From positions 1 through 41,463 of the forward strand of contig CAMDDX010000019.1 in NCBI GenBank assembly GCA_945893075.1: 41,463 nucleotides of DNA, in the 5' to 3' direction. Origin of the DNA: Planctomyces sp. SH-PL62 (GTDB taxonomy: Bacteria; Planctomycetota; Planctomycetia; Planctomycetales; Planctomycetaceae). The position numbers and the translations under genes are program-made. This document shows positions 22,320 to 41,207 of the stretch, piece after piece (position 1 is the first letter of the stretch; each line of letters starts with the position of its first letter). The notes beneath the pieces were generated by a model that ran no database searches, was not told where the DNA came from, and saw only the letters and a program-made list of their open reading frames with translations.

Positions 22320-23150
22320 TCAACGGCCCGCGGGGTCGCGAGCCAGAAACGGTAGCTCCGCCTGCTGGTACTCCGCCGTCTCCAGCAGATCGAGCACCTG
22401 TTCGATGAAGGGGAACTTCGTCTCGGCGAGATTTTCCTTCGTATAGAGATTCGCAAAGAAGGCGGCTCGATTGGGAACCGCTTGTGCTCCGTGAGCGCCG
22501 ATCTTGTCGAGCTTCTGATTGTTTTGCCGCATCAACTCCACGATGGCTTGGCGGCGTCGGACAACCTCTTCATCAACCAGCTTGTTGAGCACATCGTTCG
22601 ACGGCGTCTCCTTTGGCTCCAACGTCCGCTCGATCACCGGCAAGTGTTCGAGCAAATGCCTGAGCAGCAGCATCGCGCGCGGATCGAGGCTCACGGCAAT
22701 GTGATCGAACTCGTGCCGCAAGATGCGGCTGCTCCAGATGTCGGGCGACTCGAACGTGCTCGGCAAGCGAATGAGATGCGTCAGCTCAATCTTCGGCTCC
22801 AATTTGGTGATGTTGAGCTTCACGTTCCAACGTCCGCTCTGGCGTGTCTTCGTCAGGTCGTACTTGAACGAGGACTTAATCTGAACGTGGAAGTCCGCCC
22901 AACCGCGCGACGCCCTGACGAACTCCGGATCGGAGTCGTAAACGACCTCGACCTTGCCACGATCAATGAGCCGCTGCAGTTCCTGAAGAATTCCGTCTCG
23001 CGGAATCGGCTGGTGAGTCTCCGATTTGGAGAGTGCGTTTGTTGTTGCCGGCTTTGTCTGCGCGGGTATTTGAGCAGCGCACAGCATCCACATCGCGACC
23101 GCCAACGCAGACCGGTGAACGGGGCAGGGGAGCGGCAGCCAGTGCGACAC
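22320..23150 (-). CDS. Secreted HExxH protein, putative Zn-dependent protease
   Basis: A 276-residue exported protein beginning at GTG, with a signal peptide (HRSALAVAMWMLCAAQIPAQ). The motif HEFDH in 'SRILRHEFDHIAVSLDPRAM' fits the HExxH zinc-binding signature of metalloproteases. Before it are beta-rich segments (WADFHVQIKSSFKYDLTKTR; WNVKLNITKLEPKIELTHLI) that recall DUF922-type secreted proteases; after it comes a helical region. The third zinc ligand cannot be placed. Its start overlaps the end of the Uma2 gene by three bases of spacing (TGA, GCC, GTG), so translation is coupled. The activity is inferred from one short motif and remains uncertain. Confidence 0.6.
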   Translation of the reverse strand: MSHWLPLPCPVHRSALAVAMWMLCAAQIPAQTKPATTNALSKSETHQPIPRDGILQELQRLIDRGKVEVVYDSDPEFVRASRGWADFHVQIKSSFKYDLTKTRQSGRWNVKLNITKLEPKIELTHLIRLPSTFESPDIWSSRILRHEFDHIAVSLDPRAMLLLRHLLEHLPVIERTLEPKETPSNDVLNKLVDEEVVRRRQAIVELMRQNNQKLDKIGAHGAQAVPNRAAFFANLYTKENLAETKFPFIEQVLDLLETAEYQQAELPFLARDPAGR

Positions 23151-23851: not shown

Positions 23852-25894
23852 TCATTTGGCGAGCATCATGCGAGCCACTCGCTCCAACCGCGAATCGGGT
23901 TCATCCGGAGCGAGATCGGTGAGACACGTCGGCAGCCAGGCGGGCTTCGAGACTTTGTTGTCGGGCAGTGAGGTGAGCTTCGGGAGTTTGATCTCCGCAG
24001 CCGCGTCGCCGAATGTGGCGGCATCGGCGAGGCGAAGATGAAGACGCTTGCTGGTGATGAGTTTGGAAATCTCGCCGGCGAATTCGGCGCTGAGGCCCAG
24101 CCACAAAATGAGATTCGGATCGGCACGCAGCGCGAGACCTTGTTCGCCGTTGGTCGAGGTGAACTCGGCGAAGGCGGTTTGAAGCTGCGGGATCGTCGTG
24201 CCGTCATGCGTGCGGACGTATTCCAACAGGGCCTGGGGAAGGTCGCCGCTCTGCGCAAGCGTCTTCCATTGCTCGACCACGTCGTCCTCTTCGAGATCGG
24301 TCGGATCGAATGAGAATGGTTTGTCCTCGAAGGCTTGCTCGTCGTTGGCCGAGTCGGCAGCTTTCTGGCGTTGCTCGGCTTCGAGCATTTGCAGCACGCG
24401 GCTGTCGGGAGTCGCCGGGCGGCAGCGGCCCTTTGCCCACTCGCGAAGCTGGAAGATCTTCTCTTCCATCGTGACGGACAGCGGCACGGTTTCTTCGCGA
24501 GCTTTTTCCATCGCGGCTTGCGTGATGCCGTCGGCGCTGCCGTAGGTCTCCACCATCGCCGCCAGCACGACCTGTTCCAACTCGGCACCGCTGTAGCCTT
24601 CGCTCCGCTCGGCGAGCTTCGCAACGTCGAACGTTTCCGGTGCGAAGCGACGCTTGCGGAGGTGAATCTCCAAAATCTGTTTGCGTTCGTGATAGTTCGG
24701 CAGATCGACAAAGAAGAGTTCGTCGAAGCGTCCGCGGCGGAGCATTTCGGGCGGCAGGCCGGTGACGCTGTTGGCTGTCGCGACCACGAACACCGGAGCC
24801 GGGTTCTCCTGCATCCAGGTCAGGAAGCGGCCCATGATGCGGACCATCGTCGAGTCCGATCCCGCCTCGCCGTTCGCGCCGGCGAAACCTTTTTCGATTT
24901 CGTCCAGCCACAGCACGGCGGGAGCGATCATCTCCATCAAGGCCAGCACGTCGCGCATGTTTTTCTCGGACTGCCCCTTGTCCCCGCTGAGCAGCGTCGC
25001 GACGTCTAACCGCACGAGCGGAAACGCCAGCATCCGCGCGATCGCTCGCGCCGTGAGGCTCTTGCCGCAACCTTGCACGCCCAACAGCAACACGCCTTTC
25101 GGTGCCGGAATGCCTTGCTTCCGAGCCGTCTCGCTGAACGCCAACGATCGCTTCGAGACCCAATCCTTCAATGCGTCGAGTCCGCCGATGTCTTTGACCC
25201 CTTCGGTCAGCTCTTGGAATTCGAGCATCTCCGAGCCTTGCACCATCACCTTCTTCTCGCCGATGAGCTGCGCATAAACCTCTTCGTCAATCTCGCTGCG
25301 ACCAAGGAACGCGCGCTGGAACGACTTCCGCGCCTGAGCCGAAGTCAGTCCCAGCATCGTGCGCACGAGCCGCTCTTCCTGTTCCGGCGTGACCGCCAGC
25401 GGGGCAGGGCGGTTCGCGCTCTCCGACGCCAGCACCGCTTTCAACTCCGTGTGCAATTCGTCGAGGCCCGGCAGCGGCAAATCACACTTCAGAGCATCCC
25501 GGAGCAGTTCCATCGGAATCTCGGTGTCCGGCCCCATGAACAGCAGCGTCTTACTCTGCTCGATCAACACGGGTGCGAGATCGCGAAGTTGGCGGACGAT
25601 CTGCGGATCAGACAGAAACGTCCGAAAGTCTTTGAGCAAGAACAACTGCTCGTGGGGGAATTCGGGCACATGCCGCAAGAACTCCGCCGCGTCGGTCATC
25701 GCCGACGCCTCCCCGTTGAGCGCCGGCTGCGCCCCGCGAGTCACCGTCCACGTCACCAACCCGCGGTTCATCTCCGTCGCCAGCGCTGCTAACTCCGCCT
25801 CCCAACGTTCTTCCTCCCACGTCGAGAGAAACATCATCGAGAAGTGCGACAGGATGCGCGACTTGAGTTGAGCGAGTGTGTCGGAGGTGGCCAT
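23852..25894 (-). CDS. AAA+ ATPase, Ycf46-like
   Basis: A 680-residue cytosolic protein with one AAA+ module. The N-terminal ~200 residues are helical ([20 protein letters not shown]) and lack a nucleotide site, as in Ycf46-type ATPases. Walker A is GVQGCGKS with lysine 278, Walker B is [12 protein letters not shown] near residue 330, and the sensor region reads '[20 protein letters not shown]', then the second-region-of-homology '[20 protein letters not shown]'. A C-terminal extension of about 160 residues after the AAA lid is not typical and ends in an acidic/hydrophobic domain. It starts 15 bases after the TlpA-like gene ends, in the same direction, so the two are co-transcribed. The biological role of Ycf46 itself is poorly known; it has been linked to photosynthesis in cyanobacteria. 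Confidence 0.88.
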
Positions 25895-25909: not shown

Positions 25910-27286
25910 CTACTTGGTCTTGATCTGCTTCATCACGGATTCGTCGAGCGGGCGCAACCCCTCGTCCGGTTTGATGGCGTAGAAGCCGACGTGATAGTGA
26001 GCGATCTTGCCGTCGGGGTCGATGACGACCCAGAGCGGGAGTTTCGCTCCCAGCTTGCGCGGGTCGCCGAACTTGGCGACGAGCGTGCCGTCATCAGTCG
26101 CGATCGGGTAGCCGAGATTCATGAATTCGCGCAGCTTGCGGACTGAGCGCAGCGCACCAGTTGTCTTCGCGGGATCGGCGAACGATTCGTTGACGGCGAC
26201 GCCGACAACTTCGACGCCGTATCGCTTGCGCTTGTTCGACAAGAAGTCGAGATAGCCGACTTGGCCATAAGGCTCGACGAGCGGGTCGCTGTCGTAGTCC
26301 CAGAAGTGCAGCACGATGATCTTGCCAGCCAAGTCTTTCGAGCTGACCGTCTTCTTTTCGAGCGTCGTCAACTCAAAGGCCGGAGCCGGCTGGCCGACGA
26401 ATTTCTTCGAGACATTGGCGACGTCGTCCGCTCGCTGTGTTTGCGACTTCACGTCACGGCTGATGACGGCGGCCAGCGGGGACAGCGGCGTGTCCTCGGC
26501 GGCGGTTTGCAATTGGTCGATGACCTTCTTGGCGGCGGCGGTTTGGGCTTCGCTGAGTTCGGGTTTCGTTTCGCCGTCGGGACGAATCATCTGAGTCTTC
26601 AGGTCGCCCAGAATTTGAAAGGGCTTTTGCAGCTTCGCCAGGGCAGGGGCGTCGAGCGGCTTGACCGATTCCAATTCAAACTTCAATTGGAATTCGTCGC
26701 CGCGGCCCATGAAGACTTGTTGCTCGGCCGCGACCAGCAGCAGGTGGTTCTGCTTGGAGACCCACAGTTTTTGCTTGCGTCCGTTGTTGGTCGAGACGCG
26801 AATCAAGTGGCAATCGCGATCCTTAATCTTCTTGGCACCCTCGGCCACTTCATACGAGAACGAGCCCGCTTCCCAAGTGTCTTCGCCATCATCCTTGTCC
26901 AACACCGCGAGCTTGTCGGAATGCTCGAAGAACGGCTGCCGCAGCGGGATCGGATACAGGTGCCCTTCGTGCTCGGCGAGCAGTCGGATCGTCGCATCTT
27001 TCGCCGCCTGCTGTTTGCCGTTGAGTTCGATGGTTCCGAACCGTTCCGGCCACGCCCAGCTTCCGCCGCCACGCTCGTCGGAGAGATAGGTCAGCTTGGT
27101 CCCTTCTGCCTGTCGCGAGGCAACGGCAAAGAGCGTGAACTTTTTCAGCGGTTGATCGACCGTGCCGCGAGTGACTCGCGACAGCGTGCCGCTGTATCGC
27201 AGTTCCAAACCTGGAGCATCGCCGAGCGGATCGGCTCCCGAAGACAACAACGCGGTGACGAGCAAGACTTGGCTGATGGCAAGCAC
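25910..27286 (-). CDS. Exported redoxin-fold (TlpA-like) protein lacking CxxC
   Basis: A 458-residue protein. The GTG start at 27286 has CAGGAG eight bases upstream; a longer frame reaching 27403 only reads through a palindrome. The N-terminus (VLAISQVLLVTALLSSG) is a signal peptide. The first ~300 residues are a beta-rich domain of unknown type (LELRYSGTLSRVTRGTVDQP; SFSYEVAEGAKKIKDRDCHL). The last ~150 residues have the thioredoxin/AhpC-TSA fold (VGQPAPAFELTTLEKKTVSS; IIVLHFWDYDSDPLVEPYGQ; GVEVVGVAVNESFADPAKTT; AKLPLWVVIDPDGKIAHYHV), but the usual CxxC is replaced by DYDSDP, so it cannot be a dithiol oxidoreductase. It may be structural or ligand-binding. It shares a transcript with the AAA+ gene. 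Confidence 0.85.
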   Translation of the reverse strand: MLAISQVLLVTALLSSGADPLGDAPGLELRYSGTLSRVTRGTVDQPLKKFTLFAVASRQAEGTKLTYLSDERGGGSWAWPERFGTIELNGKQQAAKDATIRLLAEHEGHLYPIPLRQPFFEHSDKLAVLDKDDGEDTWEAGSFSYEVAEGAKKIKDRDCHLIRVSTNNGRKQKLWVSKQNHLLLVAAEQQVFMGRGDEFQLKFELESVKPLDAPALAKLQKPFQILGDLKTQMIRPDGETKPELSEAQTAAAKKVIDQLQTAAEDTPLSPLAAVISRDVKSQTQRADDVANVSKKFVGQPAPAFELTTLEKKTVSSKDLAGKIIVLHFWDYDSDPLVEPYGQVGYLDFLSNKRKRYGVEVVGVAVNESFADPAKTTGALRSVRKLREFMNLGYPIATDDGTLVAKFGDPRKLGAKLPLWVVIDPDGKIAHYHVGFYAIKPDEGLRPLDESVMKQIKTK

Positions 27287-27509: not shown

Positions 27510-29051
27510 GTGGCCGACAAAGAAAAAACTCCCGCCGCCGACGACAACAAGATCGACCACTATGTCAAAATGGGAACGATCGCGATGGGCAAGCACGCGA
27601 TGGTCTTGGAGGTTCAGGAAGAGAACACCACCAACCGCTTCGCCATGAAAGTGCTGCTGCCCGAAGCGATGCTGGACCCTGAGCAGGTTCAGATTTTGAA
27701 GTACGAAGGCAAAGTCGCACAATCGTTGGACCATCCCAACATCATCAAGTGGGTCGCGACGGTGCATCGCAAGACCAACATCTACCTGATTCTGGAACTC
27801 TTCAAAGCGACCAACATCAAAGGCTATCTGTTGAATGACATGGTCGGCTTGCAATCGCGGCTGCGGAAGTTGATCGACTGCACCAGCCAAGCGCTGCTCC
27901 ACATGCACGAGAAGGGCTGGGTGCATCTCGATATCAAGCCGGACAACATCTTGATGAACCGTTCGTCCGAGGTGCGACTCATCGACTTCTCGCTGTCCGA
28001 AAAAATCAAAGGCGCGTTGGGGAAAATCTTCAGCGGCAAGAAAGAAATCGGCGGCACGCTGTCCTACATCGCCCCGGAAACCATCAAGAAAGAGGCGTCG
28101 TCGCCCCAGACCGACATCTACAGTTTTGGGATCACGATTTACGAATGCCTCACCGGCACGTTTCCGTTCAAAGGGAGCACTCCCAGAGACCTGTTGATGA
28201 AGCACCTCACCGCGGCCCCGCCACCGCCGTCGGATTTCAACAAAAACGTCACTCCCGAAATGGATCGCATGGTGCTGCGGATGATCGCTAAGAAGCCCGG
28301 TAACCGGCAGAAGAATTTGCAGGAGCTCATGTCCGAGTTCCGCAACGTGCAGCCCTTCAAAGAAGACCCCGAAAAGCTCCGTGATCTGAAACTTGCCGAA
28401 GCGAAAGCCAACGAAGGCAAACAGACCCTCGGCAAACGGCTCGACAGCCGCACCGATCACGCACGCCTGGAACGAGCCAAGGTCGATCCGGAATTCGCCA
28501 AAACGCTCCCGGCCGCCAACGCGCCGCCACAACCGAACGTCGCCACGCCTGAGCCACCGAAACCCGCCGCGGCGAAGCCGCAACCTGTCGCCGCTCCGCG
28601 ACCGGCTCAACCGCCGATGCCCATGCCCATGCCCATGCCACCCATGTTTCCCGGTTACGCACCCCAGATGCCGTACGGTCAGATGCCCATGATGCCGGGA
28701 CAGTTCGCGCCGATGCCGGGCTATCCTGGAATGCCGCAGCCAATGCCCGGCTACGGGGCAGGGGGGCCAATGCCCGGAATGCCTCCCCAGCAAATGCCCA
28801 TGCAACCGGCAGCCATGATGCCGCAACCGGGAATGCCGATGCCGGCCATGCCCGGAGTCCCACCTCAGACGCCGGCGGTCATGTCGCAGCCGACTCAGCC
28901 TCTACCCATTCCTGTTCCACCAGCGACACCGGCTCCGGCACGTCCTTCGGCTGGATCAGTCGTGCGACCTGGCCAAAGACCAGAACCGCCACCGTCTGCG
29001 ACAGACGTCGATGACTTGCCCATGATGGATGAGCTGCCCGACGTGATGTGA
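27510..29051 (+). CDS. Serine/threonine protein kinase with Pro/Met-rich tail
   Basis: A 513-residue protein kinase of the Hanks type. The GTG start has GGAG upstream. Catalytic lysine is Lys47 (RFAMKVLLP); the catalytic loop is HLDIKPDN with Asp141; the metal-binding motif reads DFS (159-161) where kinases normally have DFG; the APE motif is intact (YIAPETIKKEAS). The glycine loop is degenerate (MGTIAMGKHAMVLEV). The first lobe ends near residue 265. The C-terminal half is disordered: charged and Lys/Glu-rich, then Ala/Pro-rich, then strings of MPMPMP and GMPMPAMPG. No membrane segment is seen, unlike many planctomycete kinases. The catalytic residues are kept, so it may be active despite the DFS. 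It is divergent from the TlpA-like gene and followed by accA. Confidence 0.88.
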   Translation: MADKEKTPAADDNKIDHYVKMGTIAMGKHAMVLEVQEENTTNRFAMKVLLPEAMLDPEQVQILKYEGKVAQSLDHPNIIKWVATVHRKTNIYLILELFKATNIKGYLLNDMVGLQSRLRKLIDCTSQALLHMHEKGWVHLDIKPDNILMNRSSEVRLIDFSLSEKIKGALGKIFSGKKEIGGTLSYIAPETIKKEASSPQTDIYSFGITIYECLTGTFPFKGSTPRDLLMKHLTAAPPPPSDFNKNVTPEMDRMVLRMIAKKPGNRQKNLQELMSEFRNVQPFKEDPEKLRDLKLAEAKANEGKQTLGKRLDSRTDHARLERAKVDPEFAKTLPAANAPPQPNVATPEPPKPAAAKPQPVAAPRPAQPPMPMPMPMPPMFPGYAPQMPYGQMPMMPGQFAPMPGYPGMPQPMPGYGAGGPMPGMPPQQMPMQPAAMMPQPGMPMPAMPGVPPQTPAVMSQPTQPLPIPVPPATPAPARPSAGSVVRPGQRPEPPPSATDVDDLPMMDELPDVM

Positions 29052-29124
29052 GTCGTCTTGCAAAACCGATCCGACTTTGCGACCGTCCCACCACCTTTCG
29101 CGACCATCCTCTCTGAGGCACACC

Positions 29125-30186
29125 ATGTCTGCGGCTCTCGCGACCAACTCCGGCGACGACGACGATCAAACACTCGCAGGCGACGACTTCCTCCCGCTGG
29201 AGGCGTACCGTCCGGCGAATCCCAATCGCATCCCGCTGCCGTTCGAGAAACCGATCCTCGAACTGGAACAGCAGCTTGCGAAGCTGGAAGCTCAGCCCAA
29301 TCCGCCGCCCAACACCAAAGAGACGATCCGCAACATGCGGCTCGACATCGCCCGGCTGACGCGCGACACCTTTGACCATCTGACTCCGGATCAAGTCGTG
29401 AAGGTCGCTCGCGACAGCGGGCGGCCGCAGACGCTCGACTACCTGGAATTGATCTTCGACGAGTTCATCGAACTCCACGGCGACCACGCTTTCCGCGACG
29501 ACCGAGCCATCCTCACGGGCTTCGCGAAACTCGACGATCAGAAGGTCATGTTCATCGGCCAGCAGAAGGGCCGGAACCTCAAGGAACGGACTGAGCACAA
29601 CTACGGAATGGCACACCCGGAGGGCTATCGCAAGGCGCTGCAAAAGATGCAGCTCGCCGCCAAGTACAAGCTGCCCATCGTCTGCTTCATCGACACCGGC
29701 GGAGCCTACCCCGGTGTCGGAGCTGAAGAACGGGGCCAGTCCTACGCCATCGCCTACAACCTCCGCGAGATGTCGCGCATCAACACCCCGATCGTCTGCA
29801 CCGTGATCGGGGAGGGGGGTTCCGGCGGAGCGCTCGGCATCGCCATCGGAGACCACATCTCGGTGTTGCAGTTCGCGTACTACTCAGTCATCAGTCCCGA
29901 AGGCTGCGCCGGCATCCTCTGGAAACACGCCAAGCACACCGACCAAGCCGCCCGCGCCTTGAAGTTCACGTCCAAGGATCTGCTGGGTCTCGGCGTCATC
30001 GACGAGATCATTCCCGAACCGCTCGGCGGAGCACACCGCGATCACCGCCGCATGGCCACGACGCTGAAGATGTCGCTGACTGCCGCACTGCGAAAGCTCG
30101 AAATGATTCCAAAGAACCAGCTCGTCCAACGCCGCTACGAAAAATTCCGCCGCATGGGCCAGTTCGAAGAAGCGACCGTCTCGTAG
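29125..30186 (+). CDS. accA: Acetyl-CoA carboxylase carboxyltransferase, alpha subunit
   Basis: Transfers the carboxyl group from biotin carboxyl carrier protein to acetyl-CoA, the first committed step of fatty acid synthesis, together with AccD. The protein has 353 residues, with an N-terminal extension of roughly 30 relative to E. coli AccA (319). Family segments are complete: 'ARDSGRPQTLDYLELIFDEF', 'GRNLKERTEHNYGMAHPEGY', 'PIVCFIDTGGAYPGVGAEER', 'GQSYAIAYNLREM', 'VIGEGGSGGALGIAIGD', and 'ISPEGCAGILWK'. The start at 29125 gives the sequence MSAALATNSGDDDDQ; an in-frame ATG 16 codons upstream is less likely. It lies 73 bases after the kinase gene. accD is not in the window, as is common. 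Confidence 0.95.
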   Translation: MSAALATNSGDDDDQTLAGDDFLPLEAYRPANPNRIPLPFEKPILELEQQLAKLEAQPNPPPNTKETIRNMRLDIARLTRDTFDHLTPDQVVKVARDSGRPQTLDYLELIFDEFIELHGDHAFRDDRAILTGFAKLDDQKVMFIGQQKGRNLKERTEHNYGMAHPEGYRKALQKMQLAAKYKLPIVCFIDTGGAYPGVGAEERGQSYAIAYNLREMSRINTPIVCTVIGEGGSGGALGIAIGDHISVLQFAYYSVISPEGCAGILWKHAKHTDQAARALKFTSKDLLGLGVIDEIIPEPLGGAHRDHRRMATTLKMSLTAALRKLEMIPKNQLVQRRYEKFRRMGQFEEATVS

Positions 30187-30192
30187 CCCCAC

Positions 30193-30282
30193 TAACCCGA
30201 TGCGTGAGCGAGGGCGAACGCTTCACGACGTTCGGAAGTCCGAGTGTCTTGGAACGCCCGCCCTCGCTCACGCTTCGGGTTA
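30193..30282. repeat. Palindrome between accA and the PLP gene (NPTRERG family)
   Basis: Arms 30193-30219 and 30256-30282 pair at about 24 of 27 positions (edges TAACCCGA and TTCGGGTTA) around a 36-base spacer. The arm sequence AACCCGATGCGTGAGCGAGG is the same family as the three arms inside PSD1. It ends 13 bases before the start of the PLP gene. Confidence 0.8.
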
Positions 30283-30295
30283 TTTAAGGTCTCGC

Positions 30296-31561
30296 ATGTC
30301 CGACAAGCCACTCGCGCCAGCCACGCTCGCTGCTCAAGGGCTCGGCTTCATTGAGCCGGTCACGAAAGCGGTCGTGCAGCCGATTCATGTCTCGACGACG
30401 TTCGAGCGTGATGCCGATAACCAATACAGCGCCGGCCGTTGTTACTCGCGAGCCGACAATCCGACGTTCGATCAAGTCGAGGCCACGCTGGCCGCGTTAG
30501 AGCAGGGGACTGACGCCTTGGTCTTCTCCTCCGGCATGGCTGCCGCGACCGCGTGCTTCCTGGCCCTCGATCCCGGCGACCACGTCATCGCTCCGACGGT
30601 CATGTATTGGGCGCTCCGCAACTGGCTGACCACGTTTGCGAGTCGCTGGGGGCTGAAGGTCTCGCTGGTCGATACGACGAAGCTCGACGAGCTTCGCGCC
30701 GCGATCCAGCCGGGGAAGACGAAACTGGTTTGGCTGGAGACTCCCTCGAACCCGCTCTGGCATGTGACCGACATCGCCGCTGCCGCTGAGATCGCTCATC
30801 AAGCCGGAGCCAAGTTGGCGGTCGATTCGACCGTGGCCGCGACCATCTTCACTCAGCCACTGACGCTGGGGGCCGACCTCGTCATGCACGCCGCGACGAA
30901 GTATCTCAACGGCCATTCGGACCTCGTCGCCGGAGCACTGGTCGCCGGTCCTACCCTCTGCGCCGCCGAGCACCTGTTGCTGGCAACCGTAGACCGGACG
31001 CCCACGTCCGGTCAGCCTGCCAATTGTCCGGACGTAGGCGTCCGGCCTACGAACATGTTCGCCCGCCTCGCCGCCGAGCCTGACGGCTATTGGAAACGAA
31101 TCCGCACGATTCGTTCTCAGTCGGGCGGAGTGCTTGGTTCGTTTGAGGCGTGGCTGCTGATGCGCGGTCTGCGAACTCTGCACCCGCGAGTTCGTTGGGC
31201 GACCACATCCGCGCAGCAACTTGCCGAGCGGCTGGCCGAGCATCCCGCGATCGCCGAAGTCTTGTATCCCGGCCTGCCAAGTTTCGCCGGTCACGAAGTC
31301 GCTCGCCGCCAAATGATTAGCGGCTTCGGAGCGATGCTCTCGATCCGTCTCAAAGCCGGAGAACTCGCCGCCATCGCCACCGCCGCCAAGGTTCAACTTT
31401 GGAAACGAGCCACATCGCTGGGCGGCGTCGAAAGCTTGCTCGAACATCGAGCCAGCATCGAAGGCCACGGCTCGCCATGTCCATCCGACTTGCTACGCCT
31501 GTCGGTTGGGATCGAAGACGCGGACGATCTCTTCAACGATCTCGATCAGGCTCTTGCGTAG
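30296..31561 (+). CDS. Cys/Met-metabolism PLP enzyme (cystathionine gamma-synthase-like)
   Basis: A fold-type I PLP enzyme of the trans-sulfuration family, 421 residues. It would act on homoserine esters or cystathionine in methionine or cysteine metabolism. Family marks are 'VVQPIHVSTTFERDADNQYS', 'RADNPTFDQVEATLAALEQG', 'ALVFSSGMAAATACFLALDP', 'WLETPSNPLWHVTDIAAAAE' and the Schiff-base lysine in 'MHAATKYLNGHSDLVAGAL'. The region after it normally proceeds directly to 'IRTIRSQSGGVLGSFEAWLL', but here a palindrome has inserted in frame, adding about 20 residues (DRTPTSGQPANCPDVGVRPT). The C-terminal active-site arginine region (LLRLSVGIEDADDLFNDLDQ) is intact. The exact reaction (gamma-synthase, gamma-lyase or beta-lyase) cannot be told. 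The stop codon lies inside another palindrome. Confidence 0.88.
   Translation: MSDKPLAPATLAAQGLGFIEPVTKAVVQPIHVSTTFERDADNQYSAGRCYSRADNPTFDQVEATLAALEQGTDALVFSSGMAAATACFLALDPGDHVIAPTVMYWALRNWLTTFASRWGLKVSLVDTTKLDELRAAIQPGKTKLVWLETPSNPLWHVTDIAAAAEIAHQAGAKLAVDSTVAATIFTQPLTLGADLVMHAATKYLNGHSDLVAGALVAGPTLCAAEHLLLATVDRTPTSGQPANCPDVGVRPTNMFARLAAEPDGYWKRIRTIRSQSGGVLGSFEAWLLMRGLRTLHPRVRWATTSAQQLAERLAEHPAIAEVLYPGLPSFAGHEVARRQMISGFGAMLSIRLKAGELAAIATAAKVQLWKRATSLGGVESLLEHRASIEGHGSPCPSDLLRLSVGIEDADDLFNDLDQALA
30988..31051. repeat. Nested palindrome inside the PLP gene (RTPTS...PDVGVR family, copy 2)
   Basis: Arms 30988-31012 and 31027-31051 pair at 22 of 25 positions, edges CGTAG and CTACG, with internal CCGGACG/CGTCCGG hairpins. 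It is read in frame on the plus strand as VDRTPTSGQPANCPDVGVRP. The copy in PSD1 at 18647-18696 yields a near-identical peptide. Confidence 0.9.
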
Positions 31562-31614
31562 CGGCGTCGCTCCGCGACACCGATTCAATCCGAGTCGCGG
31601 AGCGACTCGGCTAC
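31558..31614. repeat. Nested palindrome overlapping the PLP gene stop codon, next to the dif candidate
   Basis: Arms 31558-31578 and 31594-31614 pair at 19 of 21 positions (edges GTAGC and GCTAC; internal GTCGC/GCGAC hairpin). The TAG stop codon (31559-31561) lies in the left edge. It ends nine bases before the dif candidate. Confidence 0.85.
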
Positions 31615-31623
31615 GAACCAGCA

Positions 31624-31651
31624 ACGTCCGATAATGTCTGTTATGTTGTTT
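31624..31651 (+). other. Candidate dif site (XerCD chromosome-dimer resolution)
   Basis: A 28-base sequence with the layout of bacterial dif: an 11-base XerC-type arm (ACGTCCGATAA, 31624-31634), a six-base centre (TGTCTG, 31635-31640) and an 11-base XerD-type arm (TTATGTTGTTT, 31641-31651). The core ATAATGT.T.TTATGTT matches E. coli dif at 15 of 17 positions and the whole at 17 of 28, with the XerD half best kept, as is usual. It lies in a 226-base gene-free gap. It also sits between two opposed fields of the KOPS octamer GGGCAGGG, which in E. coli point FtsK toward dif. Both lines of evidence agree, though neither alone would be decisive. Confidence 0.68.
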
Positions 31652-31787: not shown

Positions 31788-32237
31788 TCAAAATTGCTTG
31801 TGGCTGTCGATCAGCAACGTCACCGGCCCATCGTTGACCAACTCGACATCCATGTGAGTTTGAAACCGGCCGGTCTGAACTTCGATTCCTTGGCCACGAA
31901 CTTCGGCGCAGAACGCCCGGTACAACTCGTCCGCCAACTCCGGCCGAGCCGCTTGGATAAAGCTCGGCCGACGCCCCCGGCGGCAGTCGCCCAAGAGTGT
32001 GAATTGGCTGACCGCCAAGATCGAGCCGCCGACCTCTACCAACCCCAAATTCATTTTGCCATCCGGGTCCTCAAAGACTCGCAGCCCGGCAATCTTCTGG
32101 GCCAAGTAGACGACGTCGTCCTGGCCGTCGCCGTCTTCGACTCCGAGCAGCACCAAGAAACCGCGTCCAATCTGGCCGACAACCTCGCCAGCCACTGTCA
32201 CCGACGCGCGGGAAACCCGCTGCACGACTACTCGCAT
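31788..32237 (-). CDS. dtd: D-aminoacyl-tRNA deacylase
   Basis: Hydrolyses D-amino acids (and mischarged glycine) from tRNA, preventing their entry into protein. The 149 residues match the family length (about 145-150). Both signature motifs are present: SQFTLLGD near residue 78 (catalytic Thr in SQFTL) and NDGPVT near residue 137, which places the Gly-cis-Pro in the substrate pocket. The N-terminus [20 protein letters not shown] is typical. It has a gene-free region with the dif candidate downstream and a palindrome just upstream of the start. Confidence 0.95.
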
Positions 32238-32251
32238 TTGTTCCTCGTCTC

Positions 32252-32307
32252 GTGGAGCAGGTTTTCAACCTGCCAGAACTGACGCGCAGGTTGAAAACCT
32301 GCCCCAC
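32252..32307. repeat. Nested palindrome upstream of dtd
   Basis: Arms 32252-32273 and 32286-32307 pair at 21 of 22 positions (GTGGAGC and GCCCCAC edges); each contains a GCAGGTT/AACCTGC hairpin. It fills the 71-base gap between the metallophosphoesterase stop and the dtd start. Confidence 0.88.
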
Positions 32308-32308
32308 A

Positions 32309-33280
32309 TCACCATCGTCCTCGCCTGCGTTCTTTCGAGGGCAACACTTCCAAGCAAGTCGTCCACCAGCCTGTGAGGATCGTCTCGATGAACTCATCCG
32401 GCAAGCGTTCGTCGCGCATCTCGCGAGCGAGTTGTTCGTGATCGTAGGCCAGCGATACGAACTCCACCTCCCGTGTAGCCGGCTCTCGCCGAGAGCCGAT
32501 GTGGCCCTCGGCGTCAGTCGCCTGCGAATCCGCTCTCGGCGAGAGCGGGCTACACTCCCAAGGTAGGGGAGACCGCCCTTCCCTCACGTCGTGACCAGTT
32601 CGCAGCAGCGTGTACCAGACATTCGTCGTGCCATCGTTCTCCGGGCGGCCGAGCACGCCGACGTTGATGAACGCGAAGGGGTCGGGAGTCTTTTTCAGGC
32701 CGCCGTCGCTCGACTCCGCACCGTGAACCAGTGATGGCGGCCTGAAAAAGACTCCCGACCCCGTGGTACACGAGCGCTTCCAGTGCAGCCCCGTGTGAGT
32801 TCCCAAGATCACATCGCACTCAAAGTCGTCGCAGAGCTTCGCGAGGAACTGCGAGCTCGTCGTCGATTCCCACAGGAACTCATTCGTTCGGCGCGGGCTG
32901 CCATGACAGAGCAACAATCGCACGCCATCAATCTCCAATCGCTGCTGAGCCGGCAGCAATCGCATCCACGCGCGATGGTCGTCGCTCGTGTGAGCCAGCG
33001 TGTAGTCGTAGCTGAGCTGCGCGAATTGATTATCTCGAGGATCGGTGTAGCCGCACTGACAGTCGTTCAAGCCGTGTCCGATGCTGTGATCGTAGTTGCC
33101 TTGCACGACCGAGATGCCGTTCTCGCGAATCAGTTCGCACGTGCGATCCGGATGCGGCCCAAACGCGCCGAGATCGCCGAGGCACCACATCCCATCGACA
33201 CCCCTGCCCCGTGCATCGGCAATCGCCGCCTTGAGCGCGAGGTGGTTGTTGTAGATGCCTCCAAAGAACGCGATTCGCAT
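32309..33280 (-). CDS. Metallophosphoesterase family protein with two in-frame palindrome inserts
   Basis: A 323-residue calcineurin-like phosphoesterase. The start at 33280 (MRIAFFGGIYNNHLALKAAI) has AAGGTGG about ten bases upstream. Metal-binding segments are 'MWCLGDLGAFGPHPDRTCEL' (GD), 'SVVQGNYDHSIGHGL' (GNxDH), 'RLLLCHGSPRRTNEFLWEST' (CHGS) and 'CDVILGTHTGLHWKR' (GTHTGxH); the first motif reads GGIYNN rather than the usual DIHxN. The conserved C-terminal part is 'EQLAREMRDERLPDEFIETI', then 'LTGWWTTCLEVLP'. Two stretches between conserved blocks come from palindromes: GVFFRPPSLVHGAESSDGGL, followed by KKTPDP, and a stretch from SPLSPRADSQ to SRREPATRE. Each adds roughly 30 residues in loops. 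The substrate is unknown; the family includes nucleases and nucleotide phosphodiesterases. Confidence 0.88.
   Translation of the reverse strand: MRIAFFGGIYNNHLALKAAIADARGRGVDGMWCLGDLGAFGPHPDRTCELIRENGISVVQGNYDHSIGHGLNDCQCGYTDPRDNQFAQLSYDYTLAHTSDDHRAWMRLLPAQQRLEIDGVRLLLCHGSPRRTNEFLWESTTSSQFLAKLCDDFECDVILGTHTGLHWKRSCTTGSGVFFRPPSLVHGAESSDGGLKKTPDPFAFINVGVLGRPENDGTTNVWYTLLRTGHDVREGRSPLPWECSPLSPRADSQATDAEGHIGSRREPATREVEFVSLAYDHEQLAREMRDERLPDEFIETILTGWWTTCLEVLPSKERRRGRW
32473..32555. repeat. Nested palindrome inside the metallophosphoesterase gene (C-terminal insert)
   Basis: Arms 32473-32496 and 32532-32555 pair at 23 of 24 positions; edges GTGTAGC and GCTACAC; internal GCTCTCG/CGAGAGC hairpin. 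It is read in frame on the minus strand. Confidence 0.9.
32678..32762. repeat. Perfect 27-bp-arm palindrome inside the metallophosphoesterase gene
   Basis: Arms 32678-32704 and 32736-32762 are perfect inverse complements (edges GGGGTCGGGAGTC and GACTCCCGACCCC). On the minus strand it yields GVFFRPPS and GLKKTPDP flanking a spacer. Unlike most others here it has no evident inner hairpin. Confidence 0.92.
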
Positions 33281-33453: not shown

Positions 33454-34386
33454 CTATCCTCTTGACGGATTCGCGCAGATGGCTCCGTATTGATAGCACG
33501 TCACGCACGCTCCGTGAGTCACCGCGAAGCCGCGATTCGCCGCGTGTAACGTGTCACCCAAGATCGCGTCCGGCGAGTCGATCAAGATCGGACAGACGGC
33601 AATGCCTCGGTCCGTGACAACGCGGCTGTGTTGGCAGACGAGTTGCGTCGTGTCGTAGCCAACGAGCATCTCCACCGTGACGCGATCTGAGGACGAGTAG
33701 CCGTAGGTCCGATTCGCTTCTGCTCCGAGCAGCAGGCGCGGCAGAACTTTCAATCGCGGCCGGTTATAACCGTGTTGTTGCAGCAGTTCGCGAAAGCGGC
33801 CAAGGATTTCGGCGTCCTGCGATTCGTCCCACACGCGAGTCATCGTGATGATCGGCAGGAAGCCGAACTGCACGAGCAGTTCGACGCCGTGCAGCGCTCG
33901 CTCAAACGTGCGCGGGCCGCGGATCGGGTCATTGAGTTCCGGAGTGGGGCCGTCGATCGAAACGCGGAACTCCAGCGAATAGACGCTCCCCTGCTCTGCC
34001 GCTCGCAGCCGTTCCAGCCATTCGGATTTGAGCACCGTGCCATTCGTGAGCACCGTGGCCGGTCCGAAATCGAGAGTACGTTCGAGGATCGCCACCAAGT
34101 CAGGATTCAAAAACGGCTCACCGCCGGTGAAGTAGAACTCTTTGACGCCCCACTCGACGGATTCCAGCAATCGCCGCTCTACCTCTGCAAACGACAAAAA
34201 GCCAAACGAATCGTTGTGCGGGCTGCACGAAATAAAGCAGTGCGTACAAGTCAGATTGCACCGCGTGCCCGCCACCTGAAACCACAGCTCATCCAGCGAG
34301 CCGAGTTCCACGATAGGAAAGGATTGGGACGCACCGTTCTGGTTCAGATCACAGCCAGGCACAATCGGCATAATCGCGCAATCCAT
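33454..34386 (-). CDS. Radical SAM protein with C-terminal cysteine cluster
   Basis: A radical S-adenosylmethionine enzyme of about 310 residues from the start at 34386 (MDCAIMPIVPGCDLNQNG); another ATG five codons later is equally possible, and the frame stays open up to 34542. The iron-sulfur motif is CNLTCTHC (CxxxCxxC), followed by 'SFAEVERRLLESVEWGVKEF' and the GGEP motif in 'YFTGGEPFLNPDLVAI', and later 'EFRVSIDGPTPELNDPIRG'. A C-terminal set of cysteines (QLVCQHSR; GIAVCPILID; HGACVTCYQYGAIC) suggests a SPASM/Twitch-like auxiliary cluster. Such enzymes often modify peptides, but no precursor peptide gene is recognisable nearby. The divergent DUF4394 gene starts 174 bases away. Confidence 0.88.
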   Translation of the reverse strand: MDCAIMPIVPGCDLNQNGASQSFPIVELGSLDELWFQVAGTRCNLTCTHCFISCSPHNDSFGFLSFAEVERRLLESVEWGVKEFYFTGGEPFLNPDLVAILERTLDFGPATVLTNGTVLKSEWLERLRAAEQGSVYSLEFRVSIDGPTPELNDPIRGPRTFERALHGVELLVQFGFLPIITMTRVWDESQDAEILGRFRELLQQHGYNRPRLKVLPRLLLGAEANRTYGYSSSDRVTVEMLVGYDTTQLVCQHSRVVTDRGIAVCPILIDSPDAILGDTLHAANRGFAVTHGACVTCYQYGAICANPSRG

Positions 34387-34559: not shown

Positions 34560-36593
34560 ATGTTTGGAAAGCTGGCTACGAATCTGTTTGGCGTCAAGGA
34601 TCAGCGCAGAGCGAACAAGTGGGCTTCGGCCCAAGTTCAGATCGAGATGCTTGAAAGCCGCATCGTTCCGACGGCGCTGCTGGGGCTGACAACTTCCAAT
34701 CGACTGATCCAATTCGACAGCGCGACTCCGACGGCAATCACCAATAACGTGCCGGTCACCGGATTGGCGACGGGCGAGGATCTGGTCAGCATCGACACTC
34801 GGCCGTCCAACGGCTTGGTCTACGGACTGACGAACATGAACAGGCTCTACACGTTGAATCCAAACTCTGGCGTGGCGACATCCGTCGGTGCCGCCGCAGC
34901 CCTTCCGCTGACGGGCAGTCGAAACGAGATCGACTTCAATCCGACCGTTGACCGGCTCCGCGTCGTTTCGAACAGCGACCAAAACTTCCGAATCAATCCA
35001 AACAACGGTGCGCTCGCCACAAATGACACTGCGCTGGCTTTTGCTGCTGGTGATGTCGACGTCCGCCGGGATCCGAATGTGATCGGTGCCGCCTATGACC
35101 GGAATTTTCAAGGCAGCACTTTGACCACGCTGTTTGGAATTGATCACCTCCGAAACACACTGGTGAGAATTGGCGGCGTTGATGGCCTGCCCAATCCGAG
35201 TGGTTCTCCGAATGGTGGCCAGGTCACGACCGTCGGATCATTGGGATTCAACACGGACAACCGCCTCGGTTTCGACATTGATGATGACGGCACCGCGTTC
35301 GGCGCGATGAACCGGCGGCTCCATACGATCAACTTGACGACCGGACAAGCGACGTTGGTCGGCTTGATTGGTGCCGGAGCGACATTGGACTCGCTCACGG
35401 CCCTGCCCCGTGAGGAAGTCATTTATGGAGTCTCGGCCAGCAATCGCCTGGTCAGCTTCCGAGCCAACGATCCCGGCCGGCTGTTGTCTTCCGTTCCGAT
35501 CAGCAACCTGAACGGTGGGGAGACCATTTCAGCGATCGACTTCCGTCCGGCCACCGGCGAGCTGTTCGCGCTCACCAGCACGAACCGCGCGCTACGGATC
35601 AATCCGGCCACCGGTCAGGGCACTGTGGTGGGAGCGACTCTGGATGGTTCACTCTTTGCCGCCGGCGTCGGTGTCGGTTTCGACTTCAACCCGACGGTGG
35701 ACCGATTGCGAATTGTGAACTCATCCAATGACAACTTGCGTTTCAATCCGGTGACGTCGGCGATTGTCGATAGTGATACCGTCGTGGGTGGAACTCAGGC
35801 CGATACCGACTTGTCGTTCATCAGCACCGATGCGAACGTTGGATTGGACCCCAACATCGTGGGCTCCGCGTATGACCGCAATGATAATGATGCCGGGACA
35901 ACGACGACGTTGTTCGGCATCGACTCGACGCTGAATGTCTTGGTGCGACAAGGAGCCGTGGATGGAGCTGCGAGTGATACCGCCGGTGGTGGAAGCCCCA
36001 ATGGCGGGTTGCTGACGACGCTAGGCTCGTTGGGTGTCACTCCCACGGATTTGATCGGATTCGACATCAGCAGCGCGGGCAGCGGCGGCAATGGAGTAGC
36101 TCTGGCAGTCATGCAGATTGAGACGCAGGTTGGGACCGAGACCGTCTCGAAGCTGTTCCAGATCAATATCACCGGCGGCACCAATCAGGCGTTGGGAACG
36201 GCGAGTCTGGTCGGCACGGTCGGTGGTGGCGAACTGATTGTGGCGATGGCGATCGCTCCGCCAACCATCCAGTTCAGTCAGGCCATTTTCAGGGCGACAG
36301 AAAAAGGTGGGACGGCCAGTATTGTCATCACGCGAACCGGCGGCAGTGCCACCGTCGCCACGGTCGCCTTCTCTGCTCTGGCAGGGACCGCACAGGTTGG
36401 GGACTTCACGAGCCCCAACCGCACAGTCACGTTCGGGATTGGGGAAACCACCAAGACGGTCACGTTCGCGATCACTCGCGATACCGTTAGCGAATCCGCC
36501 GAGGACGTGCTGCTCACACTCAGCGGCATCACGGGAGGCAACACCCAATTGGGACTGCTGTCCTCGGCACTTCTGGTCATCACGGACAGGTAG
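34560..36593 (+). CDS. Surface protein with two DUF4394 domains and a Calx-beta domain
   Basis: A 677-residue protein predicted to be exported. The N-terminus (MFGKLATNLFGVKDQRRANK) has no classical signal peptide, but is followed by 'QIEMLESRIVPTALLG', the LExRxVP-type motif common at the start of planctomycete cell-surface proteins. Two tandem DUF4394 domains follow (about residues 45-285 and 300-560), each with 'LLGLTTSNRLIQFDS' or 'IYGVSASNRLVSFRA' and the shared 'DFNPTVDRLRVV/RIVNSSND'-type repeat; they probably form beta-propellers. The last ~105 residues are a Calx-beta-like domain ('SIVITRTGGSATVATVAFSA'; 'TVTFGIGETTKTVTFAITRD'), usually Ca2+-binding or adhesive. A hairpin terminator follows. 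Confidence 0.9.
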   Translation: MFGKLATNLFGVKDQRRANKWASAQVQIEMLESRIVPTALLGLTTSNRLIQFDSATPTAITNNVPVTGLATGEDLVSIDTRPSNGLVYGLTNMNRLYTLNPNSGVATSVGAAAALPLTGSRNEIDFNPTVDRLRVVSNSDQNFRINPNNGALATNDTALAFAAGDVDVRRDPNVIGAAYDRNFQGSTLTTLFGIDHLRNTLVRIGGVDGLPNPSGSPNGGQVTTVGSLGFNTDNRLGFDIDDDGTAFGAMNRRLHTINLTTGQATLVGLIGAGATLDSLTALPREEVIYGVSASNRLVSFRANDPGRLLSSVPISNLNGGETISAIDFRPATGELFALTSTNRALRINPATGQGTVVGATLDGSLFAAGVGVGFDFNPTVDRLRIVNSSNDNLRFNPVTSAIVDSDTVVGGTQADTDLSFISTDANVGLDPNIVGSAYDRNDNDAGTTTTLFGIDSTLNVLVRQGAVDGAASDTAGGGSPNGGLLTTLGSLGVTPTDLIGFDISSAGSGGNGVALAVMQIETQVGTETVSKLFQINITGGTNQALGTASLVGTVGGGELIVAMAIAPPTIQFSQAIFRATEKGGTASIVITRTGGSATVATVAFSALAGTAQVGDFTSPNRTVTFGIGETTKTVTFAITRDTVSESAEDVLLTLSGITGGNTQLGLLSSALLVITDR

Positions 36594-36780: not shown

Positions 36781-38166
36781 TCAACACGGATGGAGGAGAG
36801 CCAGACTTTCAGTCAAAACTTCGCGCACTTGCTCAAGACCGACTCGTAACAGGAAGTTGGAGTTTCGTCCGTAGCTCTTCGAGCCCAGGATGAAAAAGTT
36901 GGGTTCGGGATTCTTCAGTACATCGCCGCCGTGACTCGTCTGAGTCAAACAGTCGGCGGTGGTTTCTCCCAGCAGCTTCGCGGCCAGCTTGATCGGCCCT
37001 TGCGTGGCGTAGCATTCGTGGACGTGGAGTTCTTCATAGATCGAGCGATCGGGGCGATAGCCGACGTTGGCGATGATGCGATCGACGCTCAGTCGTGAAG
37101 GCGGGTTGCTCCCCTGCCCCGCTGACCGTGACCAGTCGAGTTCGACATCGAAGCCGTTGAAGTCGCGGTACGTCTGCGTAGGCTTGAAACTCTTGATCGC
37201 AACGTCGGCAAACCACACGACCGGATGATGCCGGGCCTCCGGCGAAGATGCTCGCGAGACGTGGCCGAGGATCGCCAACTCGTTGGCTTTCGCGGCGAGT
37301 TGATCGCGCTCGGTGAGCGGATCATGCGGAACTCGCGCGATCGGACCGGCTGATGCGTCTGGCCCGGCTGGTGAGTTCGCGAACCAGAAGACCTTCGTGC
37401 GCGGATGGCGTGTGGCCAACGTCGCCAGATTCATGACCTCCGTTGCGGCGGAGAATCCCGAACCGATGACCAAGACCGTGCGGTTGCCGAATTCTGCTTT
37501 GGTAATCATGGGCAGCCGGTAATGGCTTTCGGACAACCAGTGCCGTTCGCCGACGCATGGCATCCCCGCGTCTCCGATCCAATTGTGATGCGGATAGGTG
37601 CCCGAACAATCCAGCACGACATCCGCCAACTCGACGCGCTGATTGATGTGACGTTCTTCGACTTCGTGCCACGCGCGGATTCGGCGTCCGGAGTCGGCCA
37701 GCGGTTCGTCATTCGGATCGGGCTCGTGAATGACCGAGCGTGATGTCGCAGTCTGCTCGATCAACAATTGAAATGGCTCGGAACCGCGAGCGGGTGAGCC
37801 AATCCCCTCGGTCTTCCGAAAATGTCGCCGGCTGATGGACTGCACTTGGCATTGCTCGTGAATTCGCCCGGCGAGTTCGGGAAGCTGACTGAGCGGAATC
37901 AAATAGCGTTCGGAAAATTCACGACCGGTCAGCAGTTCGTCTTCGCGGGGCAGCGTATCATCGCCGAAAGCCTTCCTGATCGCCCCCCTGCCCCACTCGG
38001 AGGAGTTTATTCCGAACGGGCTGAAGAGCCGGACGTGGCCCCAATCGAGAACGTTTTCGGCGACGCGGCCTTTCTCGAAGACCTGCACGTCATGGTTGAG
38101 TTGCCTCGCAAGCAGCGCGGCTTCGAGTCCAATCGGGCCGGCTCCGATGATGGCGATGCGAGGCAT
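36781..38166 (-). CDS. FAD/NAD(P)-binding monooxygenase-like flavoprotein
   Basis: A 461-residue flavoprotein. The N-terminal FAD-binding Rossmann motif is GAGPIGLEA (MPRIAIIGAGPIGLEAALLA), and a second nucleotide-binding motif GSGFSAATE lies near residue 235 in 'RTVLVIGSGFSAATEVMNLA', the pattern of flavin-containing monooxygenases and related NAD(P)H-dependent oxidoreductases. A third region near the C-terminus (SVDRIIANVGYRPDRSIYEE) is typical of such enzymes. 'VVLDCSGTYPHHNWIGDAGM' also fits. The substrate cannot be told. It starts 21 bases after the upstream Lys/Ala-rich gene ends; the two may be co-transcribed. Confidence 0.85.
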   Translation of the reverse strand: MPRIAIIGAGPIGLEAALLARQLNHDVQVFEKGRVAENVLDWGHVRLFSPFGINSSEWGRGAIRKAFGDDTLPREDELLTGREFSERYLIPLSQLPELAGRIHEQCQVQSISRRHFRKTEGIGSPARGSEPFQLLIEQTATSRSVIHEPDPNDEPLADSGRRIRAWHEVEERHINQRVELADVVLDCSGTYPHHNWIGDAGMPCVGERHWLSESHYRLPMITKAEFGNRTVLVIGSGFSAATEVMNLATLATRHPRTKVFWFANSPAGPDASAGPIARVPHDPLTERDQLAAKANELAILGHVSRASSPEARHHPVVWFADVAIKSFKPTQTYRDFNGFDVELDWSRSAGQGSNPPSRLSVDRIIANVGYRPDRSIYEELHVHECYATQGPIKLAAKLLGETTADCLTQTSHGGDVLKNPEPNFFILGSKSYGRNSNFLLRVGLEQVREVLTESLALLHPC

Positions 38167-40913: not shown

Positions 40914-41207
40914 CTAGCGGCGCTGTACGCTGAGTCGCAGCCCTCCTTGGGGGTGCAATGATAACTGCCATTCCGGAGTTGGCTCCCCCTGCCCTGCCGC
41001 CGGTTCGAGTCGAAACTGTTGCATGATCGCGGTGAGGACCAGCGTTCCCTCCAACATGGCGAGGCTGCGGCCGACGCAGGCTCGCGGGCCGGCACCGAAT
41101 GGGAACCAGGCACACGCTGGCCGGTCATGCTCGCACTCCGGCGTGAACCGCTGCGGATCGAACCGCGCCGGTTCCGGAAACCAGTCTGCTGACTCCGCTC
41201 TTAACGG
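40914..41207 (-). pseudogene. Cytochrome P450, C-terminal remnant
   Basis: The frame encodes the last ~95 residues of a cytochrome P450. It opens with 'WFPEPARFDPQRFTPECEHD', includes the haem-ligand loop 'WFPFGAGPRACVGRSLAMLE' with the cysteine thiolate, and ends '...GGLRLSVQRR' before the stop. A TAG stop lies just upstream in frame at 41208-41210, after which homology ends within a few codons; no I-helix or ExxR motif exists in the remaining window. So the gene has lost about three quarters of its length from the 5' side and cannot be functional. Breakage probably occurred close to 41190-41205, where the neighbouring methyltransferase region begins. Confidence 0.88.

What the first reader, a model, noticed from the sequence alone, without database searches (positions are those of the whole stretch)
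31624..31651. Candidate dif site at the focus of opposed KOPS-like motifs: probable replication terminus
Directly seen: a 28-base sequence with XerC-type arm ACGTCCGATAA, centre TGTCTG and XerD-type arm TTATGTTGTTT, whose core matches E. coli dif at 15 of 17 positions, sitting in a gene-free gap. Known: dif sites are recombined by XerCD and lie at the point to which KOPS motifs converge. Inference: this window spans the terminus of the chromosome. Dif sites in Planctomycetota are, to my knowledge, hardly characterised, so both the sequence and its gene context (between a trans-sulfuration-type gene and dtd) would be useful.
Basis: partly seen in the sequence, partly recalled or inferred. Interest (0 to 1): 0.9.

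Follow-up and report, generated by a model that had tools for sequence, protein, structure and literature searches.

The report
Chromosome dimer resolution site of planctomycetes
A 28-letter DNA site where bacteria separate chromosomes that have become joined into one ring has been found in planctomycetes, a group where an earlier survey could not find it, and in two relatives it lies about a million bases away from where DNA copying appears to finish.

Summary
Confirmed: window 31624-31651 is an intact dif site (XerC arm, 6-bp centre, XerD arm) between convergent genes. It is single-copy in its own draft genome, present in 11 of 12 same-genus genomes, own included, and as a relaxed pattern in 206 of 392 Planctomycetota genomes, against 4 with a reversed-control match. 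XerC and XerD are in the same genome. FtsK gamma is in 54 of 59 genomes, though not in the own draft; tubulin/FtsZ in 0 of 59. Two relatives carry filamentous-phage-like elements inserted at dif, a natural sign that it recombines. A 2011 survey reports failing to predict dif in Planctomycetes. 'Replication terminus' is only partly supported: in the two of four closed relatives with a significant GC skew, the skew flips 0.95-1.2 Mb beyond dif, while KOPS flip at dif and run against the skew between. That uncoupling is the most novel point.

The parts
31624..31651 (+). dif site: XerC arm 31624-31634 (ACGTCCGATAA), centre 31635-31640 (TGTCTG), XerD arm 31641-31651 (TTATGTTGTTT)
1205..1212 (+). 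KOPS GGGCAGGG pointing to dif
11284..11291 (+). KOPS GGGCAGGG
16523..16530 (+). KOPS GGGCAGGG
18217..18229 (+). two overlapping KOPS, GAGCAGGG (18217) and GGGCAGGG (18222)
20341..20348 (+). KOPS GGGCAGGG
23122..23129 (+). KOPS GGGCAGGG
25402..25409 (+). KOPS GGGCAGGG
26641..26648 (+). KOPS GGGCAGGG
28756..28763 (+). KOPS GGGCAGGG
30500..30507 (+). KOPS GAGCAGGG, last one on the left side
33202..33209 (-). KOPS GGGCAGGG, first one on the right side
33989..33996 (-). KOPS GAGCAGGG
35401..35408 (-). KOPS GGGCAGGG
37112..37119 (-). KOPS GGGCAGGG
37986..37993 (-). KOPS GGGCAGGG
40987..40994 (-). KOPS GGGCAGGG
29077..30186 (+). accA (PF03255), gene most often found beside dif in relatives, transcribed toward it
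30200..31561 (+). Cys/Met metabolism PLP enzyme (PF01053), left neighbour of dif in this genus
31788..32237 (-). dtd, D-Tyr-tRNA deacylase (PF02580), right neighbour of dif

Best explanation
31624-31651 is the chromosomal dif site of this planctomycete. XerC and XerD bind the two 11-bp arms and exchange strands at the 6-bp centre, turning a chromosome dimer back into two monomers (inferred from family knowledge; XerC and XerD genes shown in the same genome). FtsK, held at the division site, loads on KOPS octamers (GGGCAGGG/GAGCAGGG) that on both sides point at dif, and pumps DNA until both dif copies meet (KOPS polarity shown; pumping inferred). These bacteria do this without a recognisable tubulin/FtsZ protein (none found in 59 genomes), so FtsK must be placed at the division site or bud neck by something else. 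dif and the KOPS field define a segregation terminus that, in at least two closed relatives, is not where replication-linked GC skew switches.
For: Exact 11-6-11 site, single copy. 22 of 59 genomes (own included) with up to 3 mismatches, one copy each, 0 in controls; 11 of 12 same-genus genomes; 21 of the 22 hits keep the first 14 bases unchanged while the centre and the outer XerD arm vary. 206 of 392 genomes of the phylum against 4 with control hits. KOPS: window 17 of 17 GRGCAGGG toward dif; de novo top octamer of 30,649; 122 other loci 243 toward / 22 away, 71 loci mostly toward, 2 away, 5 tied, 44 without sites; best polarity break at dif, to within the 20-kb stretches on either side, in 4 of 4 closed relatives sampled; E. 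coli K-12 positive control 20/0 for GGGNAGGG. XerD 351.6 bits (cut-off 329.6) and XerC 348.5 bits (cut-off 335.15) from the own genome. FtsK gamma in 54 of 59 genomes; one of them matches the FtsK chains 2VE8/2VE9 in the PDB (that these are P. aeruginosa and that 2VE9 is the KOPS complex is recalled). Two phage-like elements of 8.7 and 14.1 kb inserted at dif, with dif copies at both ends; relatives G435 and G105 show the empty site.
Against: FtsK gamma was not found in the own draft genome, and the only PF01580 hits there are two in one 1249-aa frame; absence from the 93%-complete assembly is the likely reason but is unproven. 186 of 392 genomes of the phylum lack a match at 3 mismatches. GC skew does not switch at dif in the window or in two closed relatives. 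The E. coli FtsK gamma-XerD contact residues are not kept: R1292 and N1296 read G in all 11 sequences found, and the six own-XerD interface positions I mapped by eye (119, 123, 127, 184, 187, 188) all differ, so FtsK activation of XerD may use other contacts. No binding or recombination was measured.
Confidence: 0.95

Rival explanations
1. The site is dif, and it also marks where replication forks meet (the ordinary case); the skew offset in relatives is noise or local history.
For: In Proteobacteria and Firmicutes outliers between dif and the skew shift-point did not exceed 3% of the genome (Kono 2011 passage). In G012 dif is at 0.498 of the record, and G012 and G341 show no significant skew to contradict it.
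Against: G029 and G435: ter-side skew break 1.2 and 0.95 Mb from dif; bootstrap fraction within 0.3 Mb of dif 0.000 and 0.001. Measured from the record start along the shorter arm, dif lies at 0.23-0.50 of the chromosome in the 10 closed relatives whose lengths I had, though that start is only a proxy for the origin.
Confidence: 0.3
2. The 28-mer is an attachment site left by a Xer-using phage or plasmid, not the chromosomal dif.
For: Phage-like elements do use this site in G349 and G126, and a ParAB contig in G036 carries its own dif-like site.
Against: In the window there is one copy and no phage family among the six ORFs around it that I scanned; 10 of 10 other same-genus loci keep both gene neighbours, the Cys/Met enzyme and dtd; KOPS converge on it. 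Relatives without the element keep the site.
Confidence: 0.03
3. It is a different conserved intergenic element (terminator, RNA or protein-binding site) that only resembles dif.
For: It lies between convergent genes next to a GC-rich hairpin at 31566-31606, where terminators are expected. No RNA-family search was run.
Against: Conservation follows the XerCD arm layout, one copy per matching genome, and KOPS polarity flips there in 4 of 4 closed genomes sampled. Two elements inserted at this site.
Confidence: 0.02

Closest known systems
dif/XerCD/FtsK system of Escherichia coli
   Same: 11-6-11 site, core 15 of 17 identical, XerC and XerD equivalogs, FtsK gamma in relatives, GGGNAGGG-type KOPS that flip at dif
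   Different: No tubulin/FtsZ protein in 59 genomes; FtsK gamma N1296 and R1292 read G and E1303 reads D, R1300 kept; XerD interface residues changed; skew switch displaced from dif in two relatives
dif of Chlamydiae (predicted by Kono 2011; also FtsZ-less)
   Same: Predicted dif in another FtsZ-less phylum of the same superphylum (passages)
   Different: The same paper says prediction failed for Planctomycetes; the sequences were not compared here
IMEX phages of Vibrio cholerae (VGJphi, CTXphi, TLCphi types; passages)
   Same: Filamentous-phage gene set (Rep, Zot-like protein, secretin) bounded by dif copies and inserted at dif
   Different: Planctomycete hosts; in dif orientation the left junction is a perfect dif and the right one has two changes in the XerC arm; attP type not determined
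Single-recombinase systems (XerS/dif-SL, XerH, XerA)
   Same: Tyrosine recombinase with a dif-like site
   Different: Two recombinases pass the XerD and XerC cut-offs in the own genome, and both lie on other contigs than dif

Membership tests
chromosomal dif site | 28 bp with two 11-bp XerC/XerD arms and a 6-bp centre | tested here: met
chromosomal dif site | one copy per chromosome | tested here: met
   own draft; 22 of 22 matching genomes have one. With the looser pattern some genomes have two or more
chromosomal dif site | conserved in related genomes beyond chance | tested here: met
   206 of 392 against 4 with control hits
chromosomal dif site | lies at the junction of KOPS polarity | tested here: met
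chromosomal dif site | XerC and XerD encoded in the genome | tested here: met
chromosomal dif site | FtsK with gamma domain | tested here: inconclusive
   54 of 59 genomes, but 0 in the own draft assembly
chromosomal dif site | usual companion, not a defining feature: lies near the GC-skew shift-point | tested here: not met
   displaced in G029 and G435; no significant skew in G012 and G341; own genome not testable
chromosomal dif site | recombined by XerCD | not testable with these tools
   indirect only: elements inserted at dif in G349 and G126
KOPS | over-represented octamer of GGGNAGGG type, skewed toward dif on both arms | tested here: met
   E. coli control
KOPS | bound by FtsK gamma (E. 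coli N1296, R1300, E1303; passage in PMC2533119) | tested here: inconclusive
   of the three only R1300 is kept in the 11 sequences found (13 loci searched); binding not testable

The most novel reading that the evidence does not exclude
In Planctomycetota the segregation axis and the replication axis of the chromosome are uncoupled: dif and the KOPS field define a segregation terminus about 1 Mb away from where forks meet, stable enough that KOPS polarity runs against GC skew over that whole stretch. Off-centre KOPS arms could explain why FtsK is the one classic division gene of four tried that resisted deletion in an FtsZ-less budding planctomycete, as asymmetric replichores make FtsK translocation essential in E. 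coli.
Probability: 0.45. Interest if true: 0.8.

Novelty: new member of a known kind. Interest (0 to 1): 0.62.

Why it matters
It fills a stated gap (dif prediction failed in Planctomycetes in 2011) and shows that the parts of the FtsK-KOPS-XerCD-dif pathway are present in bacteria that divide without FtsZ and in which FtsK, but not FtsI, FtsW or MreB, resisted deletion. The stretch between dif and the skew switch in two relatives is a natural experiment: there KOPS polarity opposes strand composition, so at least there it is not a by-product of GC skew. It also gives an attachment site used by filamentous-phage-like elements of planctomycetes, and an assembly landmark for the phylum.

Tried and rejected
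Planctomycete-specific KOPS: I first read GAGCAGGG (74 toward / 4 away) as a relaxed motif tied to FtsK E1303D; the E. coli K-12 control gave GAGCAGGG 7/0, so I dropped that.

Origin from dnaA: 26 of the 32 genomes searched have exactly two DnaA-C matches, one has one and five have three to seven, so dnaA alone does not place the origin; I use the record start only as a proxy, supported by the origin-side skew break in two genomes.

Multi-copy dif: G336 has 11 matches and G311 has 4. In the sequences I read seven distinct places are inverted pairs of dif-like sequences about 220-250 bp apart, several beside a contig end; four places are single, and one of these (G336 contig 143, mid-contig, full XerC arm) may be that genome's true dif. 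I did not resolve this. Extra sites in G178 and G208: nine neighbouring ORFs at three of these sites showed no phage family; they stay unexplained.

GC skew of the window and of G012 and G341 gave no usable signal.

The column table was not used as evidence of conservation because the loci were picked with that pattern.

Full report
What is there. The 28-mer is exactly at 31624-31651, an 11-6-11 XerC/XerD-type site, 15 of 17 core positions as in E. coli dif and 17 of 28 overall. It lies between two convergent genes, a Cys/Met-metabolism PLP enzyme and dtd. It is the only match with up to 3 mismatches in the 7.57-Mb, 484-contig genome, with none in the reversed control.

Conservation. In 59 genomes (own and relatives), 22 have the 28-mer with up to 3 mismatches, one copy each, controls 0; 11 of 12 same-genus genomes, own included, are positive. 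Of the 22 hits, 21 keep the first 14 bases unchanged; the centre and the outer XerD arm vary. With a relaxed pattern 206 of 392 genomes of the phylum match; by my reading of the table 4 genomes have a control match.

KOPS. In the window GRGCAGGG occurs 17 times (2.81 expected; none of 100 shuffles reached 17): 11 on the plus strand up to 30507, then 6 on the minus strand from 33202. GGGNAGGG gives 13 plus / 1 minus left and 1 / 6 right. Without choosing a motif, I ranked octamers seen at least 20 times by how strongly they point at dif over 123 unique loci (132 examined; 5 without a site by the strict pattern and 4 duplicates dropped): GGGCAGGG is first of 30,649, 183 toward and 18 away (169/18 without the window). 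GRGCAGGG over the 122 other loci: 243 toward, 22 away; 71 loci mostly toward, 2 away, 5 tied, 44 with none. The same kind of count on 200 kb of E. coli K-12 gave GGGNAGGG 20/0 and GAGCAGGG 7/0, so the method finds known KOPS and the GAG form is not peculiar to planctomycetes.

Machinery. The own genome encodes a protein over the XerD cut-off and one over the XerC cut-off, on other contigs than dif. FtsK gamma (PF09397) is in 54 of 59 genomes but not in the own draft; the own PF01580 matches lie in one 1249-aa frame, so ftsK is probably missing from the assembly. Tubulin/FtsZ (PF00091) is in 0 of 59, while 13 of 14 control genomes ring. In 11 FtsK gamma sequences found in 13 loci searched, the position of E. 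coli N1296 is G, R1292 is G, E1303 is D, and R1300 is kept (positions placed by eye on the alignment). N1296, R1300 and E1303 are named as KOPS-reading residues in E. coli (PMC2533119, passages), and N1296 and R1292 contact XerD (PMC5052618, passages with its Table 1). I mapped the XerD partners by eye on the alignment: positions 119, 123, 127, 184, 187 and 188 all differ in the own XerD. KOPS polarity thus persists while the E. coli-type activation contact does not look conserved.

A natural recombination test. In G349 and G126 (one genus, same family as the window) two dif copies flank 8.7 and 14.1 kb. In G349 the inserted genes match a G2P-type Rep (PF23343), a Zot-domain protein (PF05707, just over its cut-off) and a secretin (PF00263; PHROG 'protein IV of M13'); G126 has similar ORFs plus others (not scanned by profile). 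The flanks abut dif to the base in the empty relative G435 for the G349 element, and on one side to the base and on the other within 5 bases in G105 for the G126 element; the insides match nothing in the five relatives compared. Filamentous-phage-like elements therefore appear to integrate at this site, as IMEX do at dif in Vibrio (PMC5357621, passages). I saw no such elements in planctomycetes described in print in searches (listings only).

Gene neighbourhood. The 10 other same-genus loci all keep the Cys/Met enzyme and dtd beside the site. Of 122 unique loci, 89 have at least 1.2 kb on both sides; 42 of these carry accA, all 42 transcribed toward dif, 39 on the XerC side, 32 within 500 bp; 47 show no accA in the DNA held. 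Dtd or a CvpA-like gene is in 44 of the 89. The accA linkage reaches a second family by handle (G054) and records titled Pirellulaceae and Thermoguttaceae, so the KOPS junction has stayed in one gene neighbourhood for a long time.

Replication terminus? I sampled four closed relatives (20-kb stretches: G029 40, G435 20 plus 8 of 10 kb, G012 20, G341 20). The best KOPS break falls at dif in 4 of 4. GC skew has a significant two-arm structure in G029 (0 of 300 shuffles) and G435 (1 of 300), not in G341 (135 of 300) or G012 (66 of 300). In G029 the ter-side skew break is 3.25 Mb (bootstrap 3.02-3.48) against dif at 2.04; in G435 3.83 (3.67-4.35) against 2.88. In the stretch between dif and the skew switch the pooled skew is +0.037 and +0.048, which would favour plus-strand KOPS, yet KOPS are 2 plus / 24 minus and 0 plus / 29 minus (the G435 figure includes two windows at or past the flip, holding 1 site). 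KOPS polarity far from dif is mixed: in G029 between about 4.2 and 5.3 Mb and in much of G012. In the 10 closed relatives whose lengths I had, dif lies 0.23-0.50 of the chromosome from the record start along the shorter arm. The origin was not mapped in any of them.

Reading. The site is dif; FtsK loads on KOPS and brings dif copies together; XerCD recombines them. Shown: site, conservation, polarity, genes, insertions at the site. Inferred: pumping, activation, dimer resolution. [quoted passage not shown] In E. coli, asymmetry of replichore polarity makes FtsK translocation essential (PMC2585057, passages including the abstract). Joining these is my hypothesis.

Print. Kono 2011 (PMC3025954, passages including the abstract) found dif in 641 organisms of 16 phyla and says prediction failed in Cyanobacteria and Planctomycetes. 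Searches showed me no paper describing a planctomycete dif or KOPS; I saw only the top of each listing and the passages cited, and most subscription papers are not held.

Limits. Loci for the octamer ranking were picked by an exact dif pattern; relatives are not phylogenetically independent; the skew result rests on two genomes of one family and on about 2.1 Mb of sampled sequence from four.

Noticed in passing
L254 4803-13541 (G349) and L255 2730-16927 (G126): Filamentous-phage-like elements inserted at dif in two planctomycete genomes; the G126 one carries about 5 kb of extra genes before its Rep-like gene.
   Followed up: partly
L259 253-4961 and 5487 (G036 contig 38, 57 kb): A contig with ParA, ParB, DarT and macro-domain genes carries its own dif-like site: probably a plasmid that uses host XerCD.
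   Followed up: partly
L262 3617-3894, L263 3925-4202, L265 259-507 (G336, G311): Pairs of inverted dif-like sequences about 220-250 bp apart, at seven places in two genomes and often near contig ends; in L262 and L263 beside the start of one shared ORF. They look like ends of a mobile repeat.
   Followed up: partly
L067 2027-2054 (-) and 2113-2140 (+): A second, inverted dif-like site close to dif in a named MAG contig.
   Followed up: no
L276 5700, L277 6825, L280 8899: Extra dif-like sites in G178 and G208 away from the one with the usual sequence, with no phage family among nine neighbouring ORFs scanned.
   Followed up: partly
L088, L119, L091, L116: The exact planctomycete dif pattern appears in records labelled Chlamydiae (2), Myxococcales (1) and Obscuribacterales (1); misbinning or wider conservation not checked.
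   Followed up: no
window 31566-31606: GC-rich palindrome (GTCGCTCCGCGAC / GTCGCGGAGCGAC) just left of dif, REP-like or terminator-like; another palindrome at 32258-32301.
   Followed up: no
window 31033-31051: A palindromic CGTAGGCGTCCGGCCTACG inside the Cys/Met enzyme gene, in a stretch that varies in length between relatives; may be a repeat that invaded the reading frame.
   Followed up: no
G000 C244 9973-11229: The only FtsK/SpoIIIE-domain matches of the own genome are two in one 1249-aa frame, perhaps a type VII secretion-like ATPase; the true ftsK seems to be missing from the assembly.
   Followed up: no
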